A stretch of DNA of 64,000 bases from Singulisphaera sp. GP187 (GTDB lineage Bacteria > Planctomycetota > Phycisphaerae > Phycisphaerales > SM1A02): contig CAMBOV010000001.1 of NCBI GenBank assembly GCA_945869475.1, forward strand, positions 310,001-374,000, written 5' to 3'. The stretch's first letter is position 1. The number at the start of each line of letters is the position of its first letter. The position numbers and the translations under genes were made by a program. This document shows, one piece after another, positions 2,424 through 61,547 of this stretch. The notes beneath the pieces were generated by a model that was not told the origin of the DNA, did not search any database, and saw nothing but the letters and a program-made list of their open reading frames with translations.

Positions 2424-2434
2424 ATTTCAGCGGG

Positions 2435-2440: not shown

Positions 2441-2450
2441 CGCCGATCGA

Positions 2451-3587: not shown

Positions 3588-3589
3588 CG

Positions 3590-4768
3590 ATGGCCGCAAG
3601 CGCTCTCCGGTTTGAAGTTCTGACGCAGCGTGCCGGTCAACACGCCCGGCGCGGTCGCGTGACGACTCCACACGGATCGTTCGACACGCCGGCGTTCATG
3701 CCCGTCGCGACCGCCGCCGCGATGAAGGGGCTCACTCCAACTCAAGTGCGTGCCACGGGCAGTCAGTGCATCCTCAACAATGCCTTTCACTTGCTCCTAC
3801 GACCAGGCCACGAGCGCGTTGCACAACTCGGCGGCGCACACACCTTCATGAGGTGGGAGGGTCCGATCCTCACCGATTCAGGGGGCTTTCAAGCCTTCTC
3901 GATGGCGCAGATCAATCGCATCAATGAAGATGGAGTCACCTTTCAATCGTTTGTGGATGGCAAGTCGATTCACCTCGGTCCTGAGTCGAGCATGTTGGTG
4001 CAGCAGGCGCTCGGCGCCGACATCGCGATGGCGTTCGATGACTGCCCTCCAGCGGGAGACGCGATCGCCGCGCCACTTCGCCGCGAGCGCACACTTCAAG
4101 CGAAAGATCGCACGCTTCGCTGGCTCGCGCGATGCGTTGCTGCGCACGCCCGCGCCGATCAGGCACTTTTTGGGATCGTCCAAGGTGGTACTGAACTCGA
4201 TCTGCGAACCGCATCCGTCGAGGCGACATGCGCGTTCGATCTCGCTGGCTATGCCATCGGCGGAGTCGCCGTGGGAGAGGGCAGCGACGCGATCGAAGCG
4301 GTTGTACGACACACTGCACCTCTGCTGCCGCGTGATCGCCCGCGCTACCTCATGGGAGTTGGTTATCCGCGCGACATCGTGATGGCGGTCGAGAGCGGCG
4401 TCGACATGTTCGACTGTGTCCTGCCCACACGCAATGGTCGTAACGGGATGGCATTCACCCGCGCGGGCGCGCTGCGCCTTCGCAATGCGGTGCACAGCGA
4501 CGACCCGCAACCGATCGAGAGGGACTGCGATTGTGAGTGCTGTGCGGGCGGTTTTTCGCGGGCGTACCTTCGTCATCTCTTCATGGCAGGGGAGATGCTC
4601 GGACCGACCCTCGTCTCCCTGCACAACATCCGTCTCTTTCAACGACTCCTACTAGACATTCGGCGCGCAATCGACGAAGATACGTGGCTTCACTTCCGCC
4701 GCGCATGGCCCTGCACTGAGCGGGTTCAATGCGGCTCGCTCGACCTCAACGGAGTATCGGATGACTGA
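3590..4768 (+). CDS. tgt: tRNA-guanine transglycosylase (queuosine biosynthesis)
   Basis: Tgt exchanges guanine-34 of GUN-anticodon tRNAs for preQ1. The 392-residue protein has 'ILTDSGGFQ' with the active-site aspartate, 'FDDCPP', 'GYAIGGVAVGE', 'MGVGYPRDI', 'FDCVLPTRNGRNG', and the zinc site CxCxxC plus downstream His ('CDCECC ... SLHN'), all family hallmarks at normal spacing and length. Its last 8 bases overlap yajC. The tgt-yajC-secDF order is common in bacteria. Confidence 0.95.
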   Translation: MAASALRFEVLTQRAGQHARRGRVTTPHGSFDTPAFMPVATAAAMKGLTPTQVRATGSQCILNNAFHLLLRPGHERVAQLGGAHTFMRWEGPILTDSGGFQAFSMAQINRINEDGVTFQSFVDGKSIHLGPESSMLVQQALGADIAMAFDDCPPAGDAIAAPLRRERTLQAKDRTLRWLARCVAAHARADQALFGIVQGGTELDLRTASVEATCAFDLAGYAIGGVAVGEGSDAIEAVVRHTAPLLPRDRPRYLMGVGYPRDIVMAVESGVDMFDCVLPTRNGRNGMAFTRAGALRLRNAVHSDDPQPIERDCDCECCAGGFSRAYLRHLFMAGEMLGPTLVSLHNIRLFQRLLLDIRRAIDEDTWLHFRRAWPCTERVQCGSLDLNGVSDD

Positions 4769-5204
4769 TTTCGCCCGCCCATCACCTCTGCTCGCAACAT
4801 CCTTCGCACTGCCACAAGATGCGCCGCCACTCGCGGGCGCACCCGTGGCTACCACGACCGCGGCAACAGGCGAGGCTGGTGCAACGCCAGTCGGTGGTGC
4901 ACGACCTGCAGGCGATCCATTTGGAATGATCTGGATGCTCATTCCATTTGTGGTGATCATGGTCTTGGTCTCAGTCATGGGACAACGCCGCGAGAAGAAG
5001 AAGCGCAACGCACTCATGTCGTCGATCAAAAAGCACGACTCGGTGCAAACTGCCGGCGGCATCATCGGCGCCGTCGTCGAAATCAAAGACGACACAATCA
5101 TCTTGAAGATCGATGAAAACTCCAACGTGCGAATGACCTTCGCCAAGAGTTCCATCATTCAAGTTCTTGCATCAGGTTCCGAATCACAAGGCATCCGTTC
5201 ATGA
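4761..5204 (+). CDS. yajC: Preprotein translocase subunit YajC
   Basis: YajC is the small accessory subunit of the SecDF-YajC complex. The 147-residue protein has a low-complexity Ala/Gly/Pro N-terminal region of about 50 residues. One membrane span follows ('IWMLIPFVVIMVLVSVMGQRR'), then the conserved 'KKHDSVQTAGGIIGAVVEIKDDTIILKIDENSNVRMTFAKSSI' fold. The N-terminal extension before the membrane span is longer than in most YajC. It overlaps tgt by 8 bp and secDF by ATGA. Confidence 0.92.
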   Translation: MTDFARPSPLLATSFALPQDAPPLAGAPVATTTAATGEAGATPVGGARPAGDPFGMIWMLIPFVVIMVLVSVMGQRREKKKRNALMSSIKKHDSVQTAGGIIGAVVEIKDDTIILKIDENSNVRMTFAKSSIIQVLASGSESQGIRS

Positions 5205-8200
5205 ACATTCGAATTCTCCCTCGTCTCATTTTCGCCATTCTCGTCATCGGGTTTTGCGTCTGGCAACTCTTCCCGCTCGAGAAGAGCGTGCGACTCGGCA
5301 AGGATCTGCGCGGTGGTGTGAGCATGGTCTATTCCGTCGCGATGCCCGAGCAGGGTGATTCGCAACGAGTACTTGCGCAGGTCGTTGACTCACTCAAGCG
5401 TCGCGTGAATCCGCAGGGTGTGCTCGACATCTCGCTGCAGCCTCAGGGACTCGACCGCATCGAAGTCGTCATGCCGTTGCCATCCGCTGACGTTCGTGCA
5501 CTCGGTGATGCCTACCGCGGTGAATTGCAGAGACTCGGCAGCTCGCTCACGATCTCTGGTCGCGAACTCGACGCAGCGCTTGCGACGGGCACCGCTGTTT
5601 CGTTGGCTCCAACCATGCAGGGGGCAACAACTGAACCAACTGCACCGGGTGGATCGCGCCGCGATGCTCTCACGCGGCTTCAACAAGCCTTCAACGATGC
5701 AACCGCTGCACGCACCGAATATCAAGCGGCGCTTGCGCAGAGCGCGCCACCCGCTCAGACTGAAGCCCTCGAACTTCGCATCGCGCAGAGCGAACTCACT
5801 GAGCGCGAAGTTCGCGCGTCGATCAGCGCGAGCAACATCGACGAGTCGCGACTCAAACGCACCTTCGAGCTCTCGGCTGAAATCCCTTTCGCACGTGACG
5901 CCGCTGGGCGAATCAAGACCTCGGCGGATGGAACTCGGCAACGTATGCCCAGCCCTCGTGATGTTGAGCTCGCGCAACTCAAGACGCAGATTCCAGATGC
6001 CGCCGCGCAAATTGATGCGCTCGCCGCGACGCAGAGCGCCTACGCGAGCAAGGTCACTGGCTACGACGATCCAGAAGATCTCAAGAGACTTCTGCGTGGA
6101 GCAGGCGTGCTTGAGTTTCACATCTCAGTCAGCGCGTCAGCAGCCGAGGGTGTCAACCCAGACGAGATGCGCAAGCAATTGGTCGAGCGCGGTCCAGATG
6201 GAACCGACTCAACGATTGCCCGTTGGTTCCCGATCAACGATCCAAAGCAATGGGCTGACACGCCCGCAGCGATGGAATCATTCTTGAGTGATCCAACGAC
6301 CTATCTGCGAGCCCGTGACCTCGTTGCGACGAAGTACAACGGCACTCCATACGTCTTGCTTTATGTCACGCAAGCGATGAGTCTCGATCACCTCGGTGGT
6401 CGGCAGTGGGCGATGAAGAATGTCTTTCCGAGCCAGGACGAGATGGGACGTACCTCCGTCGCCTTCCAACTCGATCCCGCAGGAGGAATGCTCATGGGTC
6501 AACTCACCGGCGCGAACGTTGGTCGCCCGATGGGAATTGTGCTCGACGGGCAACTTTTTTCTGCCCCAAACTTGCAGACGCAGATCTCAAACAACGGTCA
6601 GATCACTGGATCGTTCAGTCCAGACGAAATCGGCTACCTGATCCGCGTGCTTCAGGGTGGTGAACTCGAAGCAAAGTTGCAGCCCGAGCCGATCTCAGTG
6701 AGCATCCTTGGTCCAGCTCTGGGCACTGAGAATCTCACGCGTGGCCTCTGGGCCGTCGTCATCGCCAGTTGTGGAACAGCAGTCATGATGCTGCTCTATT
6801 ACTTCGGCGCTGGACTCATCGCCACCTTTGCGATTCTGCTCAACGTGGCAATGATCTTCGGCATCATGGCGGGTATTGACGGCGCATTCACTCTGCCAGG
6901 ACTCGCGGGCATCGCGCTCAGCGTTGGAATGGCAGTCGATGCCAACGTGCTCATCTATGAGCGCACGCGTGAAGAGTTGGTCGACCACGGTGAACCGCTC
7001 AAGACCGCCATCGATCTTGGATTCTCTCGCGCCTTCGCCGCCATCGTCGACGGCAACGTGACCAATCTCATCGCGTGCGTCGTGCTCTACAAGACGGCAG
7101 CGACCGAAGTCAAGGGTTTCGCACTCACGATGACCATCGGTGTGCTCACGACGCTCTTCACGGCGCTCTTCTGCACTCGAATCATCTTTGCGATCCTCAT
7201 CAATTGGTTCGGGATGAAGCGACTACCGATGTTGCCAACCGTCTTCCCAGGAGTCATGAAATTGCTGCGACCAAACATCGACTGGCTCGGACAGCGATGG
7301 GTCTGGTGGACGGCCGCCATTGGACTCTCCGTCGCGTCGACGGTGCTGGTTGTCTCGGTCGGCCGCGAGATTCTCGAAACTGAGTTTCGCGGTGGTGTGA
7401 CGATGACGCTGATGACTCGAAAGGCTGCGCCCGGTGAGCCGACTTCAGCGAGCGGACGCCTTCTCGTCGCGCGCGAGACGATCGAATCGACTCTTCACAC
7501 TTTGGGAGAAGCCTCGACCAACCCGACGATCCGCGAGTTGCGTTCAGCGAACGTCCTGACCGTGGGTGAGATGACTCCGCAGGGGGCTTCGACTGGATTC
7601 CAAGTCAAAGTCGGCAATCCAGCAACTCTCACTTCAGACCAGATTGGGACTGACGCTCTCGTCGCTGCAGTTTCAGGAGCCTTTGCGCAGTCACTCGACA
7701 CGGTGCAGCCAGTGCAGTTTGCTGGATCAGACGATCCCGAAGGAGCGCTCTTCACCAAAGCAATCACCGACGAGAGCGTCGGAGCAGCAATCGGTCGTCC
7801 CGAGATCAAGGATTCCGCCAGCGACTTCGTCGGCGGAGTCGTTGTCATGCTCACCGATCTGCAGCCTCCGATCTCGATCGAGGACGCCGAGGCCCGCATC
7901 GCCCGCATGGGCAAGCAGCCTGATTTCTCGTCGATTAGTTCACGACCCCTTCAAGTCGTTGGAGTGCAGCTTGCCGATGCGACGAACCCATCCAAGGGAT
8001 ATTCGTCGCTCGCGGTGATGATCACCGAACCGACGGCGCTGCTCTCGAAGGTCGATGCGGCGACGTGGGAACGCGTCGTTGCCAAGCCGAGTTGGAAACT
8101 CATTCAGGCGGCCTTCACCTCGAAGATGAGCCTCGATCAAGTCAACAGTTTCTCGCCAAAAGTCGCTGAAAACCTCGCGGCAAGTGCAATCGTGGCGATC

Positions 8201-8764
8201 GTGGTCAGTCTCTTTGGGATGATCCTCTACATCTGGCTGCGCTTCTCGAACCTGCGCTATTCGATGGCGACAATCACCGCGGTCTCGTTCAACGTGCTCG
8301 TCTGCCTCGGTGCGCTCGCGCTGAGCCTGCGCATCAGCGGCACCGACATCGCTCGGTTGACTGGCATCCAAGAGTTTCGCATAGATCTCAATGTTATTGC
8401 CGGTCTTTTGACGATCATTGGATACTCCTTGAACGACACGATTGTCATCCTCGACCGCATCCGAGAAAACAAGGGCAAACTTGCCCATGCCTCATGGAAT
8501 CACATCAACGGAGCGATCAATCAAACCTTTAGCCGTACCGTCATGACAGGTGGTAGCACCTTTCTGAGTGCGGTCGTTCTCTACTACTGGGGCGGACCTG
8601 CGATCCAACCCTTCGCCTTTACTTTCATTGTTGGTCTGATCGCGGGAACGATCAGTTCAGTGGTGATCGCTGCACCGATGACATACGTCGCTCAGCAGCA
8701 TCGCCCCTCAACTGGACTCGCGCGAACGGACTCCGGAGAGGTCGTCAACCCGACTCCGGTCTAA
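5201..8764 (+). CDS. secDF: Fused protein-export membrane protein SecDF
   Basis: A single 1187-residue chain carries SecD then SecF. SecD starts with one membrane span and 'LGKDLRGGVSM'. A large periplasmic domain with an Ala/Gln-rich helical insertion (about 150-270) follows. A membrane block holds the SecD signature 'GMAVDANVLIYERTREEL'. SecF restarts near residue 700 with 'EFRGGVTMTLM' and ends with a block holding 'GYSLNDTIVILDRIREN'. SecDF uses proton flow to pull secreted proteins across the inner membrane. The start overlaps yajC by 4 bp (ATGA), so translation is probably coupled. Confidence 0.95.
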   Translation: MNIRILPRLIFAILVIGFCVWQLFPLEKSVRLGKDLRGGVSMVYSVAMPEQGDSQRVLAQVVDSLKRRVNPQGVLDISLQPQGLDRIEVVMPLPSADVRALGDAYRGELQRLGSSLTISGRELDAALATGTAVSLAPTMQGATTEPTAPGGSRRDALTRLQQAFNDATAARTEYQAALAQSAPPAQTEALELRIAQSELTEREVRASISASNIDESRLKRTFELSAEIPFARDAAGRIKTSADGTRQRMPSPRDVELAQLKTQIPDAAAQIDALAATQSAYASKVTGYDDPEDLKRLLRGAGVLEFHISVSASAAEGVNPDEMRKQLVERGPDGTDSTIARWFPINDPKQWADTPAAMESFLSDPTTYLRARDLVATKYNGTPYVLLYVTQAMSLDHLGGRQWAMKNVFPSQDEMGRTSVAFQLDPAGGMLMGQLTGANVGRPMGIVLDGQLFSAPNLQTQISNNGQITGSFSPDEIGYLIRVLQGGELEAKLQPEPISVSILGPALGTENLTRGLWAVVIASCGTAVMMLLYYFGAGLIATFAILLNVAMIFGIMAGIDGAFTLPGLAGIALSVGMAVDANVLIYERTREELVDHGEPLKTAIDLGFSRAFAAIVDGNVTNLIACVVLYKTAATEVKGFALTMTIGVLTTLFTALFCTRIIFAILINWFGMKRLPMLPTVFPGVMKLLRPNIDWLGQRWVWWTAAIGLSVASTVLVVSVGREILETEFRGGVTMTLMTRKAAPGEPTSASGRLLVARETIESTLHTLGEASTNPTIRELRSANVLTVGEMTPQGASTGFQVKVGNPATLTSDQIGTDALVAAVSGAFAQSLDTVQPVQFAGSDDPEGALFTKAITDESVGAAIGRPEIKDSASDFVGGVVVMLTDLQPPISIEDAEARIARMGKQPDFSSISSRPLQVVGVQLADATNPSKGYSSLAVMITEPTALLSKVDAATWERVVAKPSWKLIQAAFTSKMSLDQVNSFSPKVAENLAASAIVAIVVSLFGMILYIWLRFSNLRYSMATITAVSFNVLVCLGALALSLRISGTDIARLTGIQEFRIDLNVIAGLLTIIGYSLNDTIVILDRIRENKGKLAHASWNHINGAINQTFSRTVMTGGSTFLSAVVLYYWGGPAIQPFAFTFIVGLIAGTISSVVIAAPMTYVAQQHRPSTGLARTDSGEVVNPTPV

Positions 8765-8808
8765 CGATCACGGACGGTTCTTTTCACACACGGACATGGA
8801 GGTCCACA

Positions 8809-9669
8809 ATGACTCGCGGAGCTAAGATTGTCGTTTTTTCTATCGTAGGTTTGTTCCTTTTGGCTGGGATGTACTTCACATTCTTCGCGCCACCGGTTCC
8901 AACCGAAACCCTCGCAGACACAACGCCGACGGTGAGTGAGAGCTCAACGCTCACGCTTGCCCCTAGTCTTCCAGACGGGGCCCCTAGTCTTCAAGACGGG
9001 GCGCTTGGTCTTCCAGACGTCGCGCCAATGGGAATGTCTGGTTTCCCCGCAAGCAATGACCCAGCGTTCGCGACGTCGACGATGTCTGCCCCAATGGTGC
9101 CGGTGATTCCAACAGATCCAACGGGATTCAACCAACCTCTCGTTGCACCTGCTGCGCCGACCCTCACGATGGATACGACGACGCCAGCGGCAATGCCAGC
9201 GCCAGTCATCGTGGCCCCAGAGCCAAAAGTCGCATCGAAGCCAGCAGTCAGCAACAACTACACCTCGTACACAGTCGTCTCAGGTGACACTCTCAGCAGC
9301 ATCGCGGGTGTCTGGTTTCGCGATACCTCGAAGTGGAAGTCGATCGCTGACATCAATCCAGGTCTCAAGCCGACGACGCTGAAGGTCGGTCAGAAGATCA
9401 ACCTTCCAGCCAAGAGTGTGGCAAGCAAGTCGGGCAAGTCAGCTCTGAAGACCGCATCTGCGTCAGCGGGGTCAGCGGGTGCCGCGACACCAACGGCAGC
9501 GAATGAGCACGTCGTTTCATCAGGCGAAACGCTCGCCTCGATCTCCGACAAGGCCTACGGAAACCGCAGCAACTGGAAGCGCATCTATGAGGCCAACAAG
9601 GGCGTGATCGGAAGCGATCCAAGCCGCTTGAAGGTCGGAATGAAGCTGACGATTCCAGCCAAAAGCTAA
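8809..9669 (+). CDS. Secreted or membrane-anchored protein with two LysM domains
   Basis: The 286-residue protein has an N-terminal membrane or signal segment ('IVVFSIVGLFLLAGMYFTFF'), a Pro/Thr/Ala-rich linker to about residue 145, and two LysM modules. The first has 'YTVVSGDTLSSIAG' and the second 'HVVSSGETLASIS', each ending in 'LKVGQKINLPA' or 'LKVGMKLTIPA'. LysM domains bind N-acetylglucosamine polymers such as peptidoglycan. The linker holds three 21-bp direct repeats. A good Shine-Dalgarno (TGGAGG) precedes the ATG, and a terminator follows at 9698. It sits 44 bp behind secDF and may be part of that transcript. Confidence 0.85.
   Translation: MTRGAKIVVFSIVGLFLLAGMYFTFFAPPVPTETLADTTPTVSESSTLTLAPSLPDGAPSLQDGALGLPDVAPMGMSGFPASNDPAFATSTMSAPMVPVIPTDPTGFNQPLVAPAAPTLTMDTTTPAAMPAPVIVAPEPKVASKPAVSNNYTSYTVVSGDTLSSIAGVWFRDTSKWKSIADINPGLKPTTLKVGQKINLPAKSVASKSGKSALKTASASAGSAGAATPTAANEHVVSSGETLASISDKAYGNRSNWKRIYEANKGVIGSDPSRLKVGMKLTIPAKS
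8959..9021 (+). repeat. Three in-frame 21-bp tandem repeats in the LysM protein linker
   Basis: Units 8959-8979, 8980-9000 and 9001-9021 encode APSLPDG, APSLQDG and ALGLPDV. The first two differ by one base; the third is diverged. Confidence 0.85.
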
Positions 9670-9697
9670 ATCGCGCTACGTATCCTCGATCTCTCCA

Positions 9698-9733
9698 ACT
9701 CCCAGCCGACGCGCGTCTGCTGGGAGTTTTTCA
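9698..9733 (+). terminator. Rho-independent terminator after the LysM gene
   Basis: ACTCCCAGC (9698-9706) pairs perfectly with GCTGGGAGT (9719-9727). A self-complementary GACGCGCGTC sits in the loop and a T-run follows. Confidence 0.88.
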
Positions 9734-9751
9734 TTGGGTCTCAAGGACTGC

Positions 9752-9757
9752 TATCGT
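9752..9757 (+). promoter_or_regulatory. -10 hexamer TATCGT of the isocitrate dehydrogenase gene
   Basis: TATCGT lies 10 nt before the ATG at 9768, directly downstream of the preceding terminator. No Shine-Dalgarno sequence is visible. Confidence 0.5.
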
Positions 9758-9767
9758 CACGACCCAC

Positions 9768-10814
9768 ATGAAATACACCGTTGTGCTTGTTCCTGGTGAT
9801 GGGATCGGTCCCGAAGTTGCAGACGCGACGTGCAAGATCCTCGCCGCAGCAGACGCTCCAATTGAATGGGTGCGCTGTCTCGCGGGAGTTGCCGCACTCG
9901 AGGCGGGCGAGAAAGAATTGCTGCCCACCGCAACCATAGCCGCGATTCGTGACCACAAAGTTGCCCTCAAAGGACCCTGCACAACCCCGGTGGGCGGAGG
10001 TTTTTCGTCGGTCAACGTTGCGATGCGCAAAACCCTCGACCTCTACGGAGCGGTGCGTCCTGTGCGATCACTCGCAGGTGTGAAGACCCGCTTCGAAGAC
10101 GTCGATCTCGTCGTCGTTCGCGAGAACACCGAAGGTCTCTACGCCGGAATCGAGAACGAAATCACCAAGGGAGTCGTGACCAGCGTGAAGGTTGCAACCC
10201 GCGATGCCTGTCTGCGCATCGCCGACTTTGCCTTTCGCTACGCAGTGCATCGCAACCGCAAGAAGGTCTCGGTTTTTCACAAGGCGAACATCATGAAGCT
10301 CTCGGATGGGATGTTCATCAAGTGCGCGCGTGAAGTGCACGACGCCAAGTATCCCAACATCGTGTACGAAGAGCTCATCATCGACGCAGCGTGCATGCGC
10401 CTCGTGCAAGACCCCACGCGTTTCGATGTGCTGCTCATGGAAAACCTCTACGGCGATGTCATCAGCGATCTCTGCGCTGGACTCGTCGGTGGTCTCGGGG
10501 TCGTGCCTGGCGCGAATCTCGGCGAGAACGCAGCGATCTTCGAGGCAGTCCACGGAAGTGCTCCAGATATCGCTGGAAAGGGCATCGCCAATCCGCTCGC
10601 GCTCACGATGAGCGCAGTCATGATGCTGAATTACATCTCAGAGATGCACAACGACCTCGCACTCGCCGCGACAGCGACGCGCATCCGCACCGCGTACGAC
10701 CTCGCACTTCGTGATGGATGCAAGACTCGTGATCTCGGCGGCGAGATGACAACCGCACAGTTCGCCGACGCGATCATCGCGCGGTTTGCGTCGCCTACCG
10801 ATCAAGAAACTTGA
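9768..10814 (+). CDS. NAD-type isocitrate dehydrogenase (isocitrate/isopropylmalate dehydrogenase family)
   Basis: The 348-residue enzyme belongs to the beta-decarboxylating dehydrogenases. Visible motifs are 'VPGDGIGPEV', substrate loop 'SSVNVAMRKTLDLY', 'VRENTEGLYAGIEN', 'HKANIMKLSDGMF', 'DVLLMENLYGDVISDL' and 'AVHGSAPDIAGKGIANP'. The 'S..N..LRK...LY..VRP' loop and ENTEG motif favour the short NAD-dependent isocitrate dehydrogenase over 3-isopropylmalate dehydrogenase, but homoisocitrate dehydrogenase cannot be fully excluded. It would convert isocitrate to 2-oxoglutarate in the TCA cycle. Its last 20 bases overlap the convergent hydrolase gene. Confidence 0.85.
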   Translation: MKYTVVLVPGDGIGPEVADATCKILAAADAPIEWVRCLAGVAALEAGEKELLPTATIAAIRDHKVALKGPCTTPVGGGFSSVNVAMRKTLDLYGAVRPVRSLAGVKTRFEDVDLVVVRENTEGLYAGIENEITKGVVTSVKVATRDACLRIADFAFRYAVHRNRKKVSVFHKANIMKLSDGMFIKCAREVHDAKYPNIVYEELIIDAACMRLVQDPTRFDVLLMENLYGDVISDLCAGLVGGLGVVPGANLGENAAIFEAVHGSAPDIAGKGIANPLALTMSAVMMLNYISEMHNDLALAATATRIRTAYDLALRDGCKTRDLGGEMTTAQFADAIIARFASPTDQET

Positions 10815-11781
10815 TGAGTGCCGCGCGAACTTCGCGCGGAGCGTCCGAAAATGCAACGTGACCGGCGCCTCGAATGAGAAGCGATTGCGATCCAGCGATG
10901 CCTTTCGAATAGACCTCGAGCATCGAGCAGTCGGTGATCTTGTCTTGGTCGCCATAGAGGATGAGCGTCGGTGCCGTGATCGAACTGAGCATGGGCTCGA
11001 CGCCGCTTACGAGGAAGGGTCCGAAGGTCGACAAGATCTCAGGATGACGAAGACACCGCTGCGCTGACTTGGCAACGAGATACTTTCGAATCGGCGCAGG
11101 CACGGGCGGCGGACGGACGAAGCAAAGTGCGAGCACGCGATCGAAGTCTGCTTTGTTGTGGATGTCGAGTGGATTTTCGCCACGCGCGATCGCCTCCATC
11201 ACTGCATTCTCGTGAGGTGGTCTCACCCCGGCAGGCGATTGCAAGACGAGTCGCCCAACTGCAGTTGGATAGGTCGCCGCGTATGCGGCGGCGAGTGCAC
11301 CGCCCATCGACTCCCCAACGAGATCGATCTGGTCGAGACTGGCGGCAATGCGAAACGCTTCAATCCACTGCACAAACTGTTCGCCGGTGAGTGGCGCTTC
11401 ACCCTCTTTGAGCGGGTTGTCGCCAAACCCTGGCAGATCCGGTGCAATCACCTCTCGCGTCTTCGAAAACCAGCGCATCTCTGCAAACATCGCCTCTTTG
11501 CTCGTGCCATATCCATGCAGAAAAAGGATCGGTGTCGCGTTCTCCTGCTCGCTGCTCATCAGTGTCGCAACCGGCGTGCCGTTCACGACGATCGACTCCA
11601 ATCGCACACCGCAGGCGATCCGTCCCAGAAAGGTCGAGAAGCCATAGAAGCCCGCGGGCCAGTTCCAGAGAATGGTGCCCGCCAGTGCAACCACCACGAC
11701 GAGTGCGGCGAGTCCAATCCCGACCCGCCGCGCGATCCGCCACACGGTCGATCGCTTCGCGGTGGTGGCAACGTCGTTCAT
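10795..11781 (-). CDS. Alpha/beta hydrolase with N-terminal membrane anchor
   Basis: The 328-residue protein has an N-terminal membrane segment ('VGIGLAALVVVVALAGTILW') and an alpha/beta-hydrolase fold. It shows the oxyanion region 'LFLHGYGTSKEAMF', nucleophile elbow GESMGG, acidic residue in 'LYGDQDKI' and histidine in 'GAGHVAFSD'. The substrate is unknown. ATG 11781 is chosen because it overlaps the upstream pseudouridine synthase stop as ATGA and has GGAGG upstream. A GTG 24 bp further up is the alternative. Its 3' end overlaps the isocitrate dehydrogenase gene by 20 bp on the opposite strand. Confidence 0.8.
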   Translation of the reverse strand: MNDVATTAKRSTVWRIARRVGIGLAALVVVVALAGTILWNWPAGFYGFSTFLGRIACGVRLESIVVNGTPVATLMSSEQENATPILFLHGYGTSKEAMFAEMRWFSKTREVIAPDLPGFGDNPLKEGEAPLTGEQFVQWIEAFRIAASLDQIDLVGESMGGALAAAYAATYPTAVGRLVLQSPAGVRPPHENAVMEAIARGENPLDIHNKADFDRVLALCFVRPPPVPAPIRKYLVAKSAQRCLRHPEILSTFGPFLVSGVEPMLSSITAPTLILYGDQDKITDCSMLEVYSKGIAGSQSLLIRGAGHVAFSDAPREVRAALIKFLDR

Positions 11782-12617
11782 GGTGTTGTCTTCTTCGCCT
11801 CCCACCAGCGGGTTCCCTGAATCAGTGCCGTGAGGCGAGCGAGCGCGGCGGCCGACGGCACGCTCGTCGCCGGCAGTCCCAGCGCAGGTGCAATCGCTTG
11901 CGCCATCGCCTGTGGAATCGGCGCGTCAATCTCGATGCGGGCACGGGTCACTGGATGCACAAACGCCAACCGCCACGCGTGCAGTCGAAGCGCTGGAGGT
12001 GCCGCGCGCTGATTCTCAGGAGGGCGACTCGTGTTGGGTGGAAGCAGCGATCGATAGATGCGGTCGCCCACAACTGGAGCTCCAAGCAACGCCATATGTG
12101 CCCTGATTTGATGCAGTTTTCCACTCTCGATCGCGCACGCAACCAGCAAATGATTCGCAGACGAGGCGATCGTCTTCCAGTAGGTGATCGCCGATTCGCC
12201 GCGCTGCGAAGCGACACTGACCTTCATGTCTCCACGGCGAATCTCACTGAGAGGTTGTTCGCAGACGCCCTCGACGCGGGGCAACCGTCCCTGCAAGACC
12301 GCGAAGTACGTCTTCTCGATCGTGCGATTCTCGAACTGTTTTCGAATCGCGTCGTACGCCCGCTCGGTGCGCGCGACAACCACCACGCCTGAAGTCTCTC
12401 GATCGAGTCGGTGCAACAATCCGAAGTCGCGCTCTGAACCGAGCCGTGTCTGCTGAACTCCTTCAACAGCAAAGAGACCATTCATCAAGCTGTCATCGCG
12501 ATGTCCCGCGCCAGGTTGCGTGACGGTGCCCGCAGGCTTGTCAAGCACGATCACTTCCTCATCTTGAAAGAGCACGTTGCAGATGACACGGGGATTGGCA
12601 CGGGGTGGAGGGGGCAC
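11778..12617 (-). CDS. RluA/RluD-family RNA pseudouridine synthase
   Basis: This 279-residue enzyme converts uridine to pseudouridine in rRNA or tRNA. The family signature HRLDRETSG holds the catalytic aspartate. 'LDKPAGTVTQPG' (early) and 'KLHQIRAHMALLGAPVVGDRIY' (late) are also present. No S4 domain is visible, so it is closer to RluA/TruC-size enzymes than full RluD; the target base is not predictable. The start is GTG (12617). It is followed by the hydrolase gene with an ATGA overlap. Confidence 0.88.
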   Translation of the reverse strand: MPPPPRANPRVICNVLFQDEEVIVLDKPAGTVTQPGAGHRDDSLMNGLFAVEGVQQTRLGSERDFGLLHRLDRETSGVVVVARTERAYDAIRKQFENRTIEKTYFAVLQGRLPRVEGVCEQPLSEIRRGDMKVSVASQRGESAITYWKTIASSANHLLVACAIESGKLHQIRAHMALLGAPVVGDRIYRSLLPPNTSRPPENQRAAPPALRLHAWRLAFVHPVTRARIEIDAPIPQAMAQAIAPALGLPATSVPSAAALARLTALIQGTRWWEAKKTTP

Positions 12618-56347: not shown

Positions 56348-56353
56348 TACACT
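56348..56353 (+). promoter_or_regulatory. -10 hexamer TACACT of the WXG100 gene
   Basis: TACACT lies 6 nt before ATG 56360. The same TACACT plus 6 nt arrangement occurs at the ftsK-like gene of this module. Confidence 0.5.
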
Positions 56354-56359
56354 TCGTTT

Positions 56360-56632
56360 ATGGCTAAGGCGGTCGTCGATCCCAATGAACTGCGGCGATT
56401 TGCAGGTGACTTGCGCAAGTTCAATCAAGACTTGCAGTCGGGCATCTCGACCATCGGCGGCCGAATGAACACGCTCTCGCAGACGTGGCGCGATCAGGAG
56501 CAGCAGAAGTTCGCCGAGGAGTTCGACCAGACGCTCAAAGTGTTGCAGCGGCTCATGAAGTCGAGTGAAGAGCACATCCCGTTCCTATTGCGCAAGGCCG
56601 ATCGGATCGACGAATACCTGCAACAGCGGTAA
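56360..56632 (+). CDS. WXG100-family (ESAT-6-like) small protein
   Basis: The 90-residue all-helical protein fits WXG100 size and layout: helix, central turn with Trp, helix. The turn reads 'LSQTWRDQEQQKFAEEF', so the usual WXG is WRD; the downstream 'FAEEF' spacing matches the family. No signal peptide is present. WXG100 proteins are dimeric substrates of type VII (ESX/Ess) secretion. The neighbouring FtsK/SpoIIIE ATPase with two membrane spans supports this. It starts the module just after rpoD. Confidence 0.83.
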   Translation: MAKAVVDPNELRRFAGDLRKFNQDLQSGISTIGGRMNTLSQTWRDQEQQKFAEEFDQTLKVLQRLMKSSEEHIPFLLRKADRIDEYLQQR

Positions 56633-56658
56633 TCGTGACGACGAGATGAGATTCGCCG

Positions 56659-57291
56659 ATGGATGCAGGTGCAAATCTTCGCGACGCCCGAACGTTGATG
56701 GCCGCCAAGGCGATCTTGGTGAAAGCGGGTCGATCGTTTGCGACGGCAATCGAAGAGGCGCAATCCGATGCCGAACGGTTTGGGATGTGGCTCGATGGTG
56801 AAGGACAAGCGCACTGGGATCGCCAGCGCCGACTTCGCACCGAAAAACTGAATATCGACAAATCGGCGCTTTTTCGCAAGCAGATTCAGCCGACAGCCGA
56901 TGGTCGACCGCCATCGGTGATCGACGAGAAGCGTGCGGTCGCACGCTCCGAAGTGGCGCTTCAACACGCCGAATCCTGCCTGCGCAATCTCAAGCGCTGG
57001 CGGGGTGAGTATCAACGACTGCTCGCGCAGTTTCGTGCGGGGATGAATCCCCTCTCGCACTATGTCGATCAGGTTGTTCCCACGGCGACCGCTTCGCTGA
57101 ACCGGATGGCGCAAGCGATCGACGCGTACCTCGCAACAACGGTGAAGCGCACCGATGCCGGCGAGAGCGAATCGTTGACGCAGATGCCCCGCGATTCGAG
57201 TGCGTCGGGCGGTCTGGGATCGATTCGCCGTGGAACCGATGAACCAACTGGTCCGGTGCGTGAACCAGAGAGTGAACCTCCCCAGTCATGA
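56659..57291 (+). CDS. Coiled-coil protein of the WXG100/FtsK module
   Basis: This 210-residue protein is not recognised. It is mainly long charged helices ('DEKRAVARSEVALQHAESCLRNLKRWRGEYQRLLAQFRAGMNPL'), then a Ser/Gly/Pro-rich tail of about 45 residues. A single 'LKRWRGEYQRLLAQF' stretch carries a W-R-G that resembles a WXG turn, so it may be an elongated ESX substrate or chaperone. There is no signal peptide or membrane span. It lies between the WXG100 gene (26 bp) and a third small gene (ATGA overlap). Confidence 0.6.
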   Translation: MDAGANLRDARTLMAAKAILVKAGRSFATAIEEAQSDAERFGMWLDGEGQAHWDRQRRLRTEKLNIDKSALFRKQIQPTADGRPPSVIDEKRAVARSEVALQHAESCLRNLKRWRGEYQRLLAQFRAGMNPLSHYVDQVVPTATASLNRMAQAIDAYLATTVKRTDAGESESLTQMPRDSSASGGLGSIRRGTDEPTGPVREPESEPPQS

Positions 57292-57512
57292 GCGACGCGA
57301 GCAGCAAAGCGAAGATAAAGGAGACATTGCGCACGATGCACGAGCAGTGGAATGGTCTCAAGAGCGAGTGGCGCGACTCGGCGTGTGAGGCGATGCAACG
57401 TGAGGCCGTCGAGAGCGCCGACGACGCGGTTCGTATGGCCATTCTCGCCCTCGAGCAGATTGGCGAGGCGATCGCACGAGCTCGCCAAGAGTGTGGTGCA
57501 AATGAGAGCTGA
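57288..57512 (+). CDS. Second small WXG-like helical protein
   Basis: The 74-residue protein is helical with a central 'LKSEWRDSACEAMQREAVESA', again a W-R-D turn like the WXG100 protein at 56360. It is shorter than typical WXG100 proteins, with a short first helix. It starts by ATGA overlap with the coiled-coil gene and ends 33 bp before the FtsK-like gene. It may form a heterodimer with one of the two upstream proteins, as EsxA/EsxB do. Confidence 0.65.
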   Translation: MSDASSKAKIKETLRTMHEQWNGLKSEWRDSACEAMQREAVESADDAVRMAILALEQIGEAIARARQECGANES

Positions 57513-57533
57513 CATCCGCGCGCAACGACTCCA

Positions 57534-57539
57534 TACACT
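57534..57539 (+). promoter_or_regulatory. -10 hexamer TACACT of the FtsK-like gene
   Basis: TACACT lies 6 nt before ATG 57546 and just after the preceding stop, giving the ATPase its own start in addition to read-through. Confidence 0.5.
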
Positions 57540-57545
57540 TTGGGA

Positions 57546-60500
57546 ATGAGCCGCACTGCTGACGCAACGCCGACCTTGCGTGGGCAGGACCTTCGTACGC
57601 GGACACTTCGTGTCATGCGAACGCTGCTCTGTGCTCCGGCTGAGCGGGTCGAGGCTCTTGAGCGACTCAGGCTCGCGACGGCCGCTGCGCAAGAAACTGA
57701 AGCGAAACTGCATGCGAACAATTCCCAAGCGATTCACGACGAACGCGTGCGATCGCAGACCGTGGCGGTGACCACACTCGGGCGCGCTCGCGCGGAGTCG
57801 GACGAACGACTCGCGCGACAGATCGCCCGCATCGATACAAGCCTTGCCGAGGCGCAGAAAAGCGAGCAGCGCGATCACCTCAACAAGCTCGAGCAGATCG
57901 AACAGACTGCGCAAGAGGATGAATGGACCGCGGACGCAATGTTTGAATCACAAGAACCACGCCCGGGCGTCGAGTTCGAAGAACTTCGGGTCGCAACGGA
58001 TCGATTGCTCGCGACTGTCGCAGAACAGATCGAGGCGGCAGAGTCACTGCTCAATCGCGCGCACATGCGCCGTCCAGTGATCGACGAGGTCGCTCCGAGT
58101 GCGAGCGAACGCAGCGCAGCGTCGGTTCTTGCTGACCAAGCAGAGAGCGCGCGCAGAGTTGTCGAACAACTCCGCAGTGAGACACGCGCGCGCATGCTTC
58201 GATTGATCATGGTGCATCTCTGCGCGCTCGTCGCGTGGGGTGCAGTTGGTGGTTTTCTTGCCTTGTTGTGCGCTCAGTGGACGGGCGTCTCGTGGCCAAT
58301 GGGCGTCATCGCTGGAGTGGTCGTTGGAACAGTCGTCCAGGTGCTCTTGTTTCTCTGGGCGGGACGACGGCTTGGAAAGATCGCAGACAATCTCAGCGCT
58401 GTCGAGGTGATCGCTTCGAATGCGGCACGTATTGCGCTCGAGCAAGGGGTACAGCGCCGAGCCGATCATGAGAAGTTGATTCTTAGCCAACACCGGACTG
58501 AACGAGCAGACGCAAAGCGCCGAGTTCAACCTGCAAGCCGCGAACTCGATGCTCGTCACCTCAAGCAGCAGCAGCGAGTCAGCGAGGGAGCCGCAACCTT
58601 GCGGCGAAACTCGATCGCGCAGCACACGGCGACCGTGGCAACCGCCGAGCGCCTCTGCGCCGAGGCGCACACACAGTTGCACGCTGTCAACGATCACCGA
58701 GTCGGCTCAGAGTCGCAGCGCCACAACGAACGGGTGACCGAGATCCGCGCGCGTGATGCCGAGGTCGGCGCTGACATTGCATCGCGATGGATCGAGGCGC
58801 GTGACCAGACTGCACGCGACTACCACGAGATCTCACAGATTGATCGGGGGCTCTTCGCGCCATGGACCGATTCGAGTTGGAGGACATTTGACGGAGTGTC
58901 CTCATCACTCGCCGCGGCGAAAGTCGGCTCAGTTCGAGTGCGGCTCGATGCCATCCCTGGGGCGCTCCCCACAGAATCCGAACTTGCGTGGCCCGCAGGA
59001 TCGCCCACGCAACTGCTGCTGCCTGTGGTGTTGGCGTTGCCATCCCATGCCTCGATGCTGATCGAGACCGATCATGCAGGTCGCGCGGGTGGAATCGAAC
59101 TCCTCCAAGGGACGATGCTGCGCATTCTCACGGCGCTGCCTCCGGGATCCGCTCGCTTCACGATCATCGATCCCGTTGGACTCGGTGAGGGATTCGCGGC
59201 ATTCATGCATCTTGCGGACGACGCCGAGCACTTGATCGGTGAACGAGTCTGGACCGATGGGCGACACATTGAGCAGCGTCTCACCGACCTCTGCGACCAC
59301 ATGGAGACGGTCATCCAGAAGTTCTTGCGCAATGAGTTTTCGAACCTCGATGAGTACAACCAGCAGGCTGGCGAGATTGCCGAGCCCTACCGATTTCTCG
59401 TCTTCTGCGACTTTCCAGCCAACGTCTCCGAAGTCGCTGCGCGAAAGCTCGCGAGCATTGTCAATAGCGGCGCTCGATGCGGCGTCTTTACGATCATCCT
59501 GCGCGACACGCGACAACCGATCCCAGCGGGGGTCGATCTGCAGGACATTCGCAGCAAGTCGCTCTGTCTGCATTGGAAACACGACCGATTCGGAGTCGAT
59601 CACGATCCGGTCAATCAGTTCGAGTTCGCAACAGAGCCGCTGCCGAGCAACGAACAGACGATGGAGCTGCTTCGCGCAATCGCGCGAACGGCCAAGAAGG
59701 CGAAGCGGGTTGAAGTGCCCTTCTCAGCGATCGCTCCCCGCGATGATGCGATCTGGAGTGAGTCGGCGGCGCAGACGATTCAAGTGGCACTCGGGCGATC
59801 GGGAGCGATGCGACTTCAGCAGATCACGCTCGGAGTGGGAACGAGTCAACACGCGCTCATTGCGGGAAAGACAGGCTCAGGAAAGTCGACGCTCTTTCAT
59901 GCGTTGATCACAAATCTCGCCCTTCGTTATAGCCCCGACGAGGCCGAACTCTGGCTGATCGACTTCAAGAAGGGTGTGGAGTTTCGTACGTACGCAACCA
60001 ACAAACTCCCGCACGCTCGAGCCGTCGCCGTCGAGAGTGACCGTGAGTTTGGTCTCTCAGTCTTGCGGGGACTCGATGCCGAACTGCGCCGCCGCGGAGA
60101 GATTTTTCGCGAGAAGTCGGTGCAGGATCTCGCGGGCTATCGGCGACTCGGAGCCGCTGAAGTCATCCCGCGTTCGCTGCTCATCGTGGATGAGTTTCAA
60201 GAACTCTTCACCGAAGATGACAAGGTCTCCGAGGAGTCTGCGCTCTTGCTCGATCGCCTCGTGCGACAGGGTCGTGCCTTCGGAATGCACGTCATTCTTG
60301 GATCGCAAACACTCGGCGGCGCCTATTCAATTGCCCGCGCGACGATGGGTCAGATGGCGATCCGCATCGCTCTGCAATGCAATGAAGCAGATTCGCAGCT
60401 CATTCTCTCGGACGACAATGTCGCGGCACGCTTGCTCTCGCGCCCTGGCGAGGCGATCTACAACGACGCCGGCGGACTCGTCGAAGGAAACAATCCTTTT

Positions 60501-61451
60501 CAAGTCGTCTGGCTCCCGGATGATGAGCGCGATCGGGTGCTCGCGAAAGTGCGCGCACATTGCGCGCGGAATCCGCCGAAGCGGCAGTCTGAGATGATTC
60601 TTTTTGAGGGCAACGCTCCGGCAGAATTCGAGTCGAATCGGCTCATGCGCGCGGCGCGAGCCCGTCGAGAGAGGGCGACGATGAGCGGTCCACCACTGCT
60701 CTGGTTTGGCGATGCGATTTCGATCAAAGACCCCACTGCTGTTGCGCTTCGTCGACAGACTGGAACCAACATCATGCTCGTGGGACAGCGCGACGATGCA
60801 GCGCTCGCGATCGCTGCCGCATCGATGGTCTCGCTTGCTGCACAGATGAATCCCGCCCTTGCGCAGGTTGTCTTGCTTGACGGAACGCCACCGGACGATC
60901 CAACATTCGGTCACCTCGCCGCGCTGCACTCACAACTTGGACTTGGCGCAGAGACAGGCGGTCTTCGCGATTGTGAAACACTTCTCACTCGCGCCACTGC
61001 TGAACTCGTGCGCCGGCAGAGTGATCTAACTCTCTCGCCACCACCCTGCCTCGTGCTCGTCCATGCGATTCATCGTTTTCGAAGCCTTCGACGCGATGAG
61101 GATGACTACAGCTTCTCGTCGTCAAGCCAGACCGTTGCAACACCCGATCGACAACTCGCAACGTTGCTGCGTGAGGGCCCAACGCTCGGGATACACGTGC
61201 TGGTCACCTGCGATAGCGCAGCGAATCTCGCCCGCTCATTCGATCGCAATTCGATCCGCGAGTTCGAGTGGCGAATGCTTTTTCAGGTGAGCGCATCCGA
61301 TTCCAGCACTCTGATCGATTCTCCTGTCGCGAGCCGATTGGGTCCGCAACGGGTGCTCCTGCACAGCGAAGAAACAGGCACTCAGGAGAAGTTTCGACCG
61401 TATGCGTGGCCGACATCGCAGTGGCTGAGTGAATTCTTCGCGCGGGGCTGA
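57546..61451 (+). CDS. FtsK/SpoIIIE-family membrane ATPase, EccC/EssC-like
   Basis: The 1301-residue protein has an N-terminal coiled coil (about 1-215), two membrane spans ('LIMVHLCALVAWGAVGGFLALLC', 'GVIAGVVVGTVVQVLLFLWAG', about 218-275) and a second coiled coil (about 280-430). Three RecA-like modules follow. Module 1 (about 500-650) lacks a P-loop. Module 2 has Walker A GKTGSGKST (about 773) and Walker B 'SLLIVDEF' (about 878). Module 3 (about 1065-1280) has 'LVGQRDDAAL' in place of a P-loop. The spans plus tandem ATPases match the EccC/EssC motor that exports WXG100 proteins; FHA or EccB/D/E partners are absent. A DNA-pump role is less likely because no FtsK gamma domain is seen. Confidence 0.85.
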   Translation: MSRTADATPTLRGQDLRTRTLRVMRTLLCAPAERVEALERLRLATAAAQETEAKLHANNSQAIHDERVRSQTVAVTTLGRARAESDERLARQIARIDTSLAEAQKSEQRDHLNKLEQIEQTAQEDEWTADAMFESQEPRPGVEFEELRVATDRLLATVAEQIEAAESLLNRAHMRRPVIDEVAPSASERSAASVLADQAESARRVVEQLRSETRARMLRLIMVHLCALVAWGAVGGFLALLCAQWTGVSWPMGVIAGVVVGTVVQVLLFLWAGRRLGKIADNLSAVEVIASNAARIALEQGVQRRADHEKLILSQHRTERADAKRRVQPASRELDARHLKQQQRVSEGAATLRRNSIAQHTATVATAERLCAEAHTQLHAVNDHRVGSESQRHNERVTEIRARDAEVGADIASRWIEARDQTARDYHEISQIDRGLFAPWTDSSWRTFDGVSSSLAAAKVGSVRVRLDAIPGALPTESELAWPAGSPTQLLLPVVLALPSHASMLIETDHAGRAGGIELLQGTMLRILTALPPGSARFTIIDPVGLGEGFAAFMHLADDAEHLIGERVWTDGRHIEQRLTDLCDHMETVIQKFLRNEFSNLDEYNQQAGEIAEPYRFLVFCDFPANVSEVAARKLASIVNSGARCGVFTIILRDTRQPIPAGVDLQDIRSKSLCLHWKHDRFGVDHDPVNQFEFATEPLPSNEQTMELLRAIARTAKKAKRVEVPFSAIAPRDDAIWSESAAQTIQVALGRSGAMRLQQITLGVGTSQHALIAGKTGSGKSTLFHALITNLALRYSPDEAELWLIDFKKGVEFRTYATNKLPHARAVAVESDREFGLSVLRGLDAELRRRGEIFREKSVQDLAGYRRLGAAEVIPRSLLIVDEFQELFTEDDKVSEESALLLDRLVRQGRAFGMHVILGSQTLGGAYSIARATMGQMAIRIALQCNEADSQLILSDDNVAARLLSRPGEAIYNDAGGLVEGNNPFQVVWLPDDERDRVLAKVRAHCARNPPKRQSEMILFEGNAPAEFESNRLMRAARARRERATMSGPPLLWFGDAISIKDPTAVALRRQTGTNIMLVGQRDDAALAIAAASMVSLAAQMNPALAQVVLLDGTPPDDPTFGHLAALHSQLGLGAETGGLRDCETLLTRATAELVRRQSDLTLSPPPCLVLVHAIHRFRSLRRDEDDYSFSSSSQTVATPDRQLATLLREGPTLGIHVLVTCDSAANLARSFDRNSIREFEWRMLFQVSASDSSTLIDSPVASRLGPQRVLLHSEETGTQEKFRPYAWPTSQWLSEFFARG

Positions 61452-61473: not shown

Positions 61474-61547
61474 GGGCGCTTAGCTCAGCTGGCTAGAGCA
61501 CTGCCCTTACATGGCAGGTGTCGCGGGTTCGAATCCTGCAGCGCTCA
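61474..61547 (+). tRNA. tRNA-Val (anticodon TAC)
   Basis: The acceptor is GGGCGCT with AGCGCTC (one G-T pair) and discriminator A. The D arm is GCTCAGCTGGCTAGAGC. The anticodon stem is CTGCC/GGCAG with loop CTTACAT, giving anticodon TAC. The T arm is GCGGG-TTCGAAT-CCTGC. No encoded CCA. It sits inside the 5' part of a long open frame that continues into the FlgI-like gene; that part of the frame is not coding. Confidence 0.96.

What the first reader, a model, noticed from the sequence alone, without database searches (positions are those of the whole stretch)
56348..61451. Compact type VII secretion-like module next to rpoD
Four genes stand together: a WXG100 protein, a coiled-coil protein, a second small WRD-motif protein and an EccC/EssC-like ATPase with two membrane spans. 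No EccB, EccD, EccE, mycosin, EsaA/EsaB, YukD or FHA protein is present. If this secretes, it does so with a very reduced set, or with unknown partners in a cell that also has an outer membrane. The coiled-coil protein has no recognised family.
Basis: partly seen in the sequence, partly recalled or inferred. Interest (0 to 1): 0.75.

Follow-up and report, generated by a model that had tools for sequence, protein, structure and literature searches.

The report
Toxin-free type VII-like four-gene module
Next to a sigma-factor gene, this planctomycete carries a conserved four-gene set that looks like a stripped-down, membrane-anchored relative of the type VII protein exporter, with a plain hairpin protein sitting where at least one related plasmid-borne set carries a toxin.

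Summary
Window 56360-61451 encodes A (WXG100-type hairpin, WRD in the turn), B (long helical hairpin, no known family), C (small WXG-like protein, also WRD) and D (EccC/EssC-like ATPase, two membrane spans, three ATPase modules, only the middle one intact). A-B-C-D stands in order in 35 of 41 loci read from its class. A, C and D co-occur almost perfectly over 198 genomes; in four genomes the genes are scattered but all present. D's tree follows the bacterial families, so the set is mainly inherited. It also occurs elsewhere in Planctomycetota.

The kind is not new. A table note (Zhang 2012) names solo WXG plus a three-module ATPase with only the middle active, planctomycetes included. A similar cassette extends CoCoNuT restriction systems, and HP0062 of Helicobacter pylori is A's nearest solved relative. 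Not found described: the fixed four-gene make-up, B and C as families, the membrane anchor, the vertical inheritance, and a B without toxin. In one of four related plasmid loci the B slot holds a recognised nuclease toxin with an immunity gene. So B is most likely a type VII-style substrate without a toxin, sometimes with an Imm33-like domain. Export is untested.

The parts
56360..56632 (+). Gene A: WXG100-type helical hairpin protein, 90 aa (HP0062/EsxA-like), W-R-D at residues 43-45
   Evidence: Pfam WXG100 35.4 bits over cut-off 27.3; profile matches 3fx7 HP0062 E 5e-13, EsxB E 3e-9, EsxA E 3e-5; 30 aligned members, 68% mean column identity
56486..56494 (+). WRD motif of A at the place of W-x-G
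   Evidence: W43 and D45 invariant in 30 of 30 aligned members
56659..57291 (+). Gene B: coiled-coil protein, 210 aa, predicted long antiparallel helical hairpin plus low-confidence tail; substrate-like
   Evidence: AlphaFold2 helices 10-76 and 88-166, mean pLDDT 86; no Pfam family for this member; 35 members aligned
56686..57156 (+). Helical hairpin region of B (residues 10-166), ending near invariant Tyr157
57288..57512 (+). Gene C: small WXG-like protein, 74 aa, W-R-D at residues 28-30; start overlaps the end of B by 4 nt
   Evidence: Pfam WXG100 19.4 bits, below cut-off; 5 of 35 members match WXG100 at E <= 0.05, best 1.5e-6; W28 and D30 invariant in 35 of 35
57369..57377 (+). WRD motif of C
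57546..61451 (+). Gene D: EccC/EssC-like ATPase, 1301 aa: coiled coil, two membrane spans, coiled coil, three ATPase modules (coiled coils by reading)
58218..58355 (+). Two hydrophobic spans of D (residues 225-243 and 252-270)
   Evidence: Kyte-Doolittle peaks 2.2 and 2.4; hydrophobic cover of 38 or more residues in the N-terminal part in 35 of 39 class members
58986..59705 (+). ATPase module 1 of D (about residues 481-720), no Walker A, strongly conserved
   Evidence: alignment; AlphaFold2 model
59775..60500 (+). ATPase module 2 of D (residues 744-985), the only one with intact Walker motifs
   Evidence: Pfam FtsK_SpoIIIE 744-922; conserved columns
59865..59888 (+). Walker A GKTGSGKS (residues 774-781) of D
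   Evidence: G774, T776-S781 invariant, K775 at least 90%
60177..60197 (+). Walker B region LLIVDEF (residues 878-884) of D
   Evidence: D882, E883, F884 invariant
60693..61448 (+). ATPase module 3 of D (about residues 1050-1301), degenerate
   Evidence: no Walker A in the alignment; best VIA-align rows over this region 6jd5_B and 6j18, titled ATPase, Z 21 and 20

Best explanation
A-B-C-D is a stand-alone, membrane-anchored translocase module built on type VII principles. D is the ATPase and probably a hexamer at the inner membrane (anatomy shown; hexamer inferred from the family). A is the EsxA/HP0062-like hairpin that D needs or moves. B with C is a substrate-like pair: B is the long targeting hairpin, as in LXG, PPE or EspB-type substrates, and C its small WXG-like partner, as Lap proteins are for LXG toxins. 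In at least one related plasmid locus B's position carries a toxin. In Planctomycetota B has no recognised toxin: it ends in a low-confidence tail or an Imm33-like domain. The set has therefore been kept as an inherited, mostly single-copy cellular function, probably moving B (with A and/or C) across the inner membrane. Shown: gene content, conservation, co-occurrence, domain anatomy, inheritance in this class. Inferred: that it exports, what it exports, and the fate at the outer membrane.
For: Order A-B-C-D in 35 of 41 loci and in 16 of 26 regions outside the class; co-occurrence, scattered cases included. D is closest to EccC by whole-chain Foldseek and has EccCa/EssC as best NCBIfam models, with a membrane hairpin. 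A's profile finds HP0062, EsxB and EsxA. A and C look homologous: the C profile hits A proteins (E 2e-4; E 4e-7 and 3e-5). B is a long hairpin. B-slot proteins of related loci: WHH and colicin-DNase domains followed by a SUKH immunity gene in a Helicobacter sp. plasmid; Rhodococcus B-slot matched by the B profile at E 9e-7; a weak, below-cut-off metallopeptidase match with HExxH in L050. Imm33-like match in 13 of 35 B proteins at E <= 0.1. D's tree follows families: 11 changes, least possible 10, shuffled mean 22.9.
Against: Export was not tested. The T7SS signal Y-x-x-x-[D/E] is absent: A 0 of 30, C 1 of 35 (Y or F), B 1 of 35 at its invariant Tyr. No channel partner is encoded in the module, and no outer-membrane route is known. 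Of four plasmid B-slot proteins only one carries a recognised toxin domain; three have no Pfam match at E <= 0.01, and the Deinococcus one looks like coiled coil to its end. The B profile matches only one of the four. C-slot equivalence is also mostly positional: the C profile matches the Deinococcus protein (E 1e-8) and the Rhodococcus one weakly (0.002), but not the Helicobacter (0.015) or Caballeronia (0.4) ones. The plasmid D proteins have no membrane hairpin. B found no close fold: no PDB match at E <= 0.001.
Confidence: 0.48

Rival explanations
1. A, B and C are permanent structural subunits of the D machine (channel lining, plug or scaffold), and the real cargo is encoded elsewhere or differs by species.
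For: A is extremely conserved (68% mean column identity), more like a machine part than an effector; B has no recognised toxin domain; genes can be unlinked and still co-occur. In G012 one further WXG100-like stretch, below the cut-off (22.7 bits), lies in a 2271-residue frame elsewhere and could be cargo.
Against: A related plasmid locus puts a nuclease domain and an immunity gene around the B slot. In 19 of 20 genomes searched with WXG100 the only matches lie in the module (the second match of G155 is its C gene), so there is little WXG-type cargo elsewhere.
Confidence: 0.24
2. The module is not a secretion system but an intracellular conflict/defence device, as suggested for the CoCoNuT and TerY-P linked cassettes, acting on nucleic acid or on invaders at the membrane.
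For: A plasmid cassette (Caballeronia, L154) sits between VWA genes with CARF, PP2C and kinase genes, like the CoCoNuT type III-A extension (PMC11090510 section 10); D's middle module matches the FtsK motor (Z 31, 282 residues). PADLOC hits of D to SspH and mad8 (E 3e-28, 3e-23) cover its active ATPase module.
Against: No flanking gene family has a copy outside A-D in more than 6 of 41 loci, apart from one chained cluster of minus-strand frames in part antisense to A and B (11 loci); so there is no fixed TerY, kinase or CARF partner, though flanks were not annotated one by one. D is membrane-anchored; inheritance is vertical and near-core in the family (A in 127 of 151 genomes), unusual for defence.
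Confidence: 0.17
3. It is an ordinary T7SSb or T7SSa whose other parts lie elsewhere in the genome.
For: D and A are homologous to T7SS parts. One of 8 genomes (G048) has a YukD-like protein.
Against: No YukC/EssB in 8 of 8 and no YukD in 7 of 8 genomes, with B. subtilis as positive control; export motif missing. EccB search inconclusive.
Confidence: 0.04
4. It is a mobile element (mobile version of T7SS, as written in PMC3482391).
For: Related cassettes lie on plasmids; flanks differ between families.
Against: D's tree tracks families; one A match per genome in 64 of 65 A-positive class genomes (G073 has two); several flanking families recur in the same six loci of the window's family, and the sigma factor gene lies within 8 kb upstream of D's aligned start on the same strand in five of these; no integrase recognised by eye among the frames of 54-64 kb.
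Confidence: 0.05

Closest known systems
Solo WXG plus YueA-like ATPase with three HerA/FtsK domains, only the middle active (Zhang et al. 2012, PMC3482391, Table 1 note 6; passages seen)
   Same: Same ATPase plan, same solo WXG protein, planctomycetes named
[quoted passage not shown] Caballeronia plasmid L154)
   Same: Two WXG100-type proteins, coiled-coil protein, ATPase with N-terminal coiled coil and only the central module active
   Different: There the coiled-coil protein is fused to a D-ExK nuclease, the paper says the ATPase lacks membrane spans, and the cassette sits within VWA/kinase/CARF genes; here none of these was seen, and D has membrane spans
Helicobacter pylori HP0062 / HP0066 (PMC3397514 passages; PMC4978471 passages and section 17; PDB 3fx7, 2gts)
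   Same: HP0062 is the best PDB match of A and has WRD in the turn; clusters with an FtsK-type gene
   Different: The H. pylori locus itself was not compared; PMC4978471 lists an HNH/EndoVII nuclease in its WXG100 secretion system cluster, absent here
T7SSa / T7SSb and T7SSc-j (PMC11217815, passages seen)
   Same: EccC/EssC-type ATPase plus WXG100 protein as core; predicted substrates paired with small WXG-like partners
   Different: No EssB/YukC or YukD found, no Y-x-x-x-[D/E], diderm host (by phylum, not tested); PMC11217815 counts four ATPase domains in EccC/EssC, PMC11090510 three, D has three
LXG effector with Lap1/Lap2 partners (PMC9600955, passages seen)
   Same: Long helical targeting domain next to a small WXG-like partner gene
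   Different: No LXG family match in B; no toxin domain; one partner (C), with A as a second WXG-type protein

Membership tests
Type VII secretion system (T7SSa/T7SSb) | EccC/EssC-type FtsK ATPase with several ATPase modules | tested here: met
   NCBIfam EccCa/EssC best hits though far below cut-off; EccC 4nh0 top in Foldseek, E 3e-33
Type VII secretion system (T7SSa/T7SSb) | WXG100 protein encoded with the ATPase | tested here: met
   A over Pfam cut-off, but W-x-D in place of W-x-G in 37 of 37
Type VII secretion system (T7SSa/T7SSb) | EssB/YukC membrane partner (T7SSb) | tested here: not met
   0 of 8 genomes; B. subtilis control positive
Type VII secretion system (T7SSa/T7SSb) | Ubiquitin-like YukD/EsaB | tested here: not met
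   none in the window's genome; 1 of 8 genomes has one; control positive
Type VII secretion system (T7SSa/T7SSb) | EccB (T7SSa) | tested here: inconclusive
   0 of 8, but no control genome rang
Type VII secretion system (T7SSa/T7SSb) | EccD, EccE, mycosin, EsaA, FHA domains | not tested
   no genome search made; no FHA match in D by Pfam
Type VII secretion system (T7SSa/T7SSb) | C-terminal signal Y-x-x-x-[D/E] | tested here: not met
   A 0 of 30, C 1 of 35 (Y or F), B 1 of 35 at its invariant Tyr
Type VII secretion system (T7SSa/T7SSb) | Demonstrated export of the WXG100 protein | not testable with these tools
   needs an experiment
Solo WXG / three-module FtsK class (PMC3482391 note 6) | Three FtsK-type modules with only the middle one carrying Walker motifs | tested here: met
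   Walker A and B conserved only in module 2; three modules in the model
Solo WXG / three-module FtsK class (PMC3482391 note 6) | Solo WXG protein beside the ATPase | tested here: met
   D's tree follows families, 11 changes with 10 the least possible; holds for this class sample only
CoCoNuT type III-A WXG/EssC extension | Flanking TerY-like VWA genes and CoCoNuT core | tested here: not met
   none recognised by eye among the frames overlapping 54-64 kb of the window (no family search of the flanks)
CoCoNuT type III-A WXG/EssC extension | Coiled-coil protein fused to a D-ExK nuclease | tested here: not met
   window B ends in a low-confidence tail, no Pfam match at E <= 10
LXG polymorphic toxin (as B) | LXG domain and C-terminal toxin | tested here: not met
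   window B has no Pfam family at E <= 10; among the 25 families shown of 43 for 35 members, no LXG or toxin family

The most novel reading that the evidence does not exclude
Planctomycetota carry a vertically inherited, toxin-free, type VII-like exporter of the diderm inner membrane whose single dedicated cargo is B: a polymorphic-toxin delivery system converted to a housekeeping envelope function, with an Imm33-like domain standing, in some species, where the toxin used to be.
Probability: 0.33. Interest if true: 0.8.

Novelty: new variant of a known kind. Interest (0 to 1): 0.6.

Why it matters
Type VII secretion is treated as a system of Gram-positive phyla with phylum-specific partners. 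A four-gene, self-contained version that is inherited as a near-core trait in a planctomycete family would show what the minimal working unit is (ATPase, WXG-type hairpin, substrate pair) and would be a natural test of whether an EccC/EssC-type ATPase alone can make the path. It also suggests a toxin-delivery cassette turned to a cellular use.

Tried and rejected
Rejected: an ordinary T7SSb with scattered parts. Rejected: chance neighbours. Rejected as sole reading: mobile element. Led nowhere: fold search with B gave only generic coiled coils, no E at or under 0.001; PDB profile search with B gave nothing at E <= 1; NCBIfam and PADLOC add nothing for B (best NCBIfam E 0.19) and only a weak WXG100 match for C. 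Which EccC module D's active one corresponds to is unsettled: sequence favours the first EccC ATPase (85 vs 61 bits), while the whole-chain structural alignment to 4nh0 puts it in the middle (rmsd 14). T7SS parts not listed prove nothing. B length classes on D's tree: 7 changes, shuffled mean 11, lowest shuffle 6, so only weakly clustered; the Imm33-like domain seems gained or lost several times. Complexes could not be predicted (monomers only). H. pylori's own locus was not fetched. Anantharaman 2012 was not read; I know it from PMC4978471 and PMC11090510. Literature searches: (open library only). Of the papers I opened, only PMC3482391 names planctomycetes with solo WXG; PMC4631099 (listing) holds both words and was not opened. 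The export motif comes from PMC9600955 passages; HxxxD/ExxhxxxH from PMC3935865 passages is in 0 of 30 A proteins.

Selections and drops: 40 class regions plus the window were chosen by me from 66 D-positive genomes; D-positive is my cut (best E 6e-73 or better; next genome 2e-16). Rows left out of alignments: A 7 of 37 (six with longer start choices, and divergent L050), C 2 of 37 (L036, L050), B 1 of 36 (L036), D core 2 of 39, full D 8 of 39. The D tree (38 rows) lacks L045 (broken frame), L050 and L051. B was searched only in 11 genomes (7 positive), not over the 198. Outside the class I read 26 regions of the 44 non-class A-positive genomes, chosen by hand. L045 (in-frame stop in D) is among the 35; L051 (broken D at a contig end) is not. 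An earlier count said 36 of 41; the recount is 35.

Full report
What is there. Four genes on the + strand, A 56360-56632, B 56659-57291, C 57288-57512, D 57546-61451, follow a primary sigma factor gene and precede tRNA-Val (61474-61547) and a gene that I read as flgI (gene names by reading). A is a WXG100 protein by Pfam (35.4 bits, cut-off 27.3) and C a weak one (19.4 bits); B has no family; D is an FtsK/SpoIIIE-type ATPase whose best NCBIfam models are EccCa and EssC, far below their cut-offs. A is the only PF06013 match at E <= 0.001 in the genome.

How conserved. D was searched in 198 genomes of the class: 66 have a long relative at E 6e-73 or better (my cut; the next genome stands at 2e-16, and the weaker hits cover mostly residues of about 740-1000, which I take for FtsK). 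A is found in 65 and C in 64 of the same 198; 62 have all three and the union is 68. The six discordant genomes are 60-82% complete. Among genomes at least 90% complete and at most 5% contaminated, A and C are each in 47 of 155. I read 41 loci (window plus 40 of the other 65 D-positive genomes): 35 have A-B-C-D in this order. One more (L051) has A-B-C and a broken D at a contig end. In four loci (G084, G006, G055, G149) D stands alone, yet A, B and C are found elsewhere in each of these genomes; in G149, a two-contig genome, A, B-C and D lie at three places. One locus (G073, L050) is a divergent version. In the window's family A is in 127 of 151 genomes, 90 of 99 of good quality.

Beyond the class. 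A is in 60 of 392 genomes of the phylum, 44 of them outside the class. Of 26 such regions read, 16 show A-B-C-D in this order (in one, D is cut by the contig end), 3 show A-B-C, 2 A-B, 1 A and D, and 4 A alone; the 21 B frames are 166-235 residues long. In genome contigs 552 stretches encode relatives of A; the best 80 carry titles that are planctomycete or plain 'bacterium', with one labelled Chitinophaga that I take for a mislabel.

Inheritance. A tree of D's ATPase part (38 rows) needs 11 changes of family label, 10 being the least possible and 22.9 the shuffled mean. A sigma factor gene lies upstream on the same strand in the window and four more loci of the same family, and downstream on the other strand in a fifth. 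Flanking gene families that recur outside A-D do so in at most 6 of 41 loci, apart from one chained cluster of minus-strand frames in part antisense to A and B, which has copies outside in 11 loci. So in this class the set is mainly inherited and sometimes lost.

Anatomy. D: coiled coil, two hydrophobic spans (225-243, 252-270), coiled coil, three ATPase modules. Walker A (774-781) and Walker B (878-884) are conserved only in the middle module. 35 of 39 class D proteins and 13 of 15 others (one of the 15 is the odd L176) have 38 or more residues under hydrophobic windows in the N-terminal part (a crude test). The AlphaFold2 model of residues 440-1301 (mean pLDDT 88) finds EccC of Thermomonospora first by Foldseek; by VIA-align the FtsK motor scores highest over one module (Z 31, 282 residues, rmsd 2.8), while EccC 4nh0 aligns over all three (Z 27.8, 740 residues, rmsd 14). 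B is predicted as one long hairpin, helices 10-76 and 88-166, mean pLDDT 86, with a low-confidence tail. Most B lengths are of two kinds, 187-231 and 327-379 residues, one is 275; 13 of 35 match Pfam Imm33-like at E <= 0.1, best 5e-11. A and C carry W-x-D in 37 of 37 each. A's profile finds HP0062 of H. pylori (E 5e-13), then EsxB and EsxA; PMC3397514 notes WRD in HP0062 and a neighbouring FtsK gene. A and B end their second helix with an invariant Tyr, but the acid of Y-x-x-x-[D/E] is missing in 34 of 35 B and in 30 of 30 A.

The B slot. Four plasmid loci with D-like ATPases were read; by the D profile three match over all three modules and the Helicobacter one over modules 1 and 2. All have an A-like protein by profile (E 1e-24 to 4e-10 against these few proteins). 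Helicobacter sp.: A, a 340-residue protein with WHH/colicin-DNase domains, a SUKH protein, a 77-residue protein, D. Caballeronia: VWA, A, a 436-residue coiled-coil protein in which I see a D...E-x-K pattern by eye (no Pfam match), 113 and 76 residues, D, CARF, VWA, PP2C, kinase. Rhodococcus: D, a 314-residue protein matched by the B profile (E 9e-7), 73 residues, A, near TerD genes. Deinococcus: D, two WXG-type proteins, a 326-residue coiled-coil protein without recognised toxin, then a 144-residue protein matched by the C profile. None of these D proteins shows two hydrophobic peaks; two show one marginal peak. Within the class, L050 has a 353-residue B-slot protein with HExxH, a metallopeptidase match below cut-off. 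From this I infer that B is the targeting hairpin of a type VII-like substrate and C its partner, and that planctomycete B has no toxin. The inference rests on one profile match, one recognised toxin and position.

What is known. PMC3482391 (passages) states in a table note that lineages including planctomycetes have solo WXG domains with a YueA-like ATPase of three HerA/FtsK domains, only the middle active, 'mobile versions of T7SS'. PMC11090510 (section 10 read) describes a like cassette in CoCoNuT type III-A operons, with a nuclease fused to the coiled coil and no membrane spans. [quoted passage not shown] pylori. So the kind is known; the four-gene planctomycete form, its membrane anchor, its inheritance and the toxin-free B I did not find described.

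Mechanism. Best reading: D drives, at the inner membrane, movement of a B-C and/or A complex. Shown: parts, conservation, coupling, inheritance. Inferred: export and cargo. How anything would pass the outer membrane is unknown. The strongest rival is that A, B and C are fixed machine parts. Results against: no export signal, no partner subunits found, and B's link to toxin carriers is thin.

Noticed in passing
L176 (G097:C11), 4703-12060, - strand: A D-like ATPase of 1470 aa (D profile E 4e-136) stands with an M48 peptidase, a ThiF/E1-type protein and a Prok-JAB protein: a different gene set around the same kind of ATPase.
   Followed up: partly
L050 (G073:C31), 2277-10177, - strand: A divergent version in the same class: D, two A-like proteins, a B-slot protein with HExxH near its C-terminus, a C-like protein and a Sel1-repeat protein.
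   Followed up: partly
L153 (Deinococcus plasmid), 8168-8596: A 142-residue protein just upstream of a spanless D-like ATPase ends in a single membrane span, as if the anchor were a separate gene.
   Followed up: no
G048:C1:5777978-5778217: A YukD-like protein over the Pfam cut-off in one relative, far from its A-B-C-D genes.
   Followed up: no
G012:C293:16107-16325: A WXG100-like stretch below the cut-off (22.7 bits) inside a 2271-residue open frame, apart from the module: a possible large WXG-type cargo.
   Followed up: no
L184 (G084:C16), 4328-5545: The three small genes stand in the order B-C-A, about 180 kb from D on the same contig.
   Followed up: yes
L045 (G179:C3): D is interrupted by an in-frame TAG in an otherwise intact module; G079's D also has one TAG.
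   Followed up: no
control genome Thermotoga maritima: It rings for WXG100 in the family search together with B. subtilis, one of the two over the cut-off: a bacterium outside the usual T7SS phyla.
   Followed up: no
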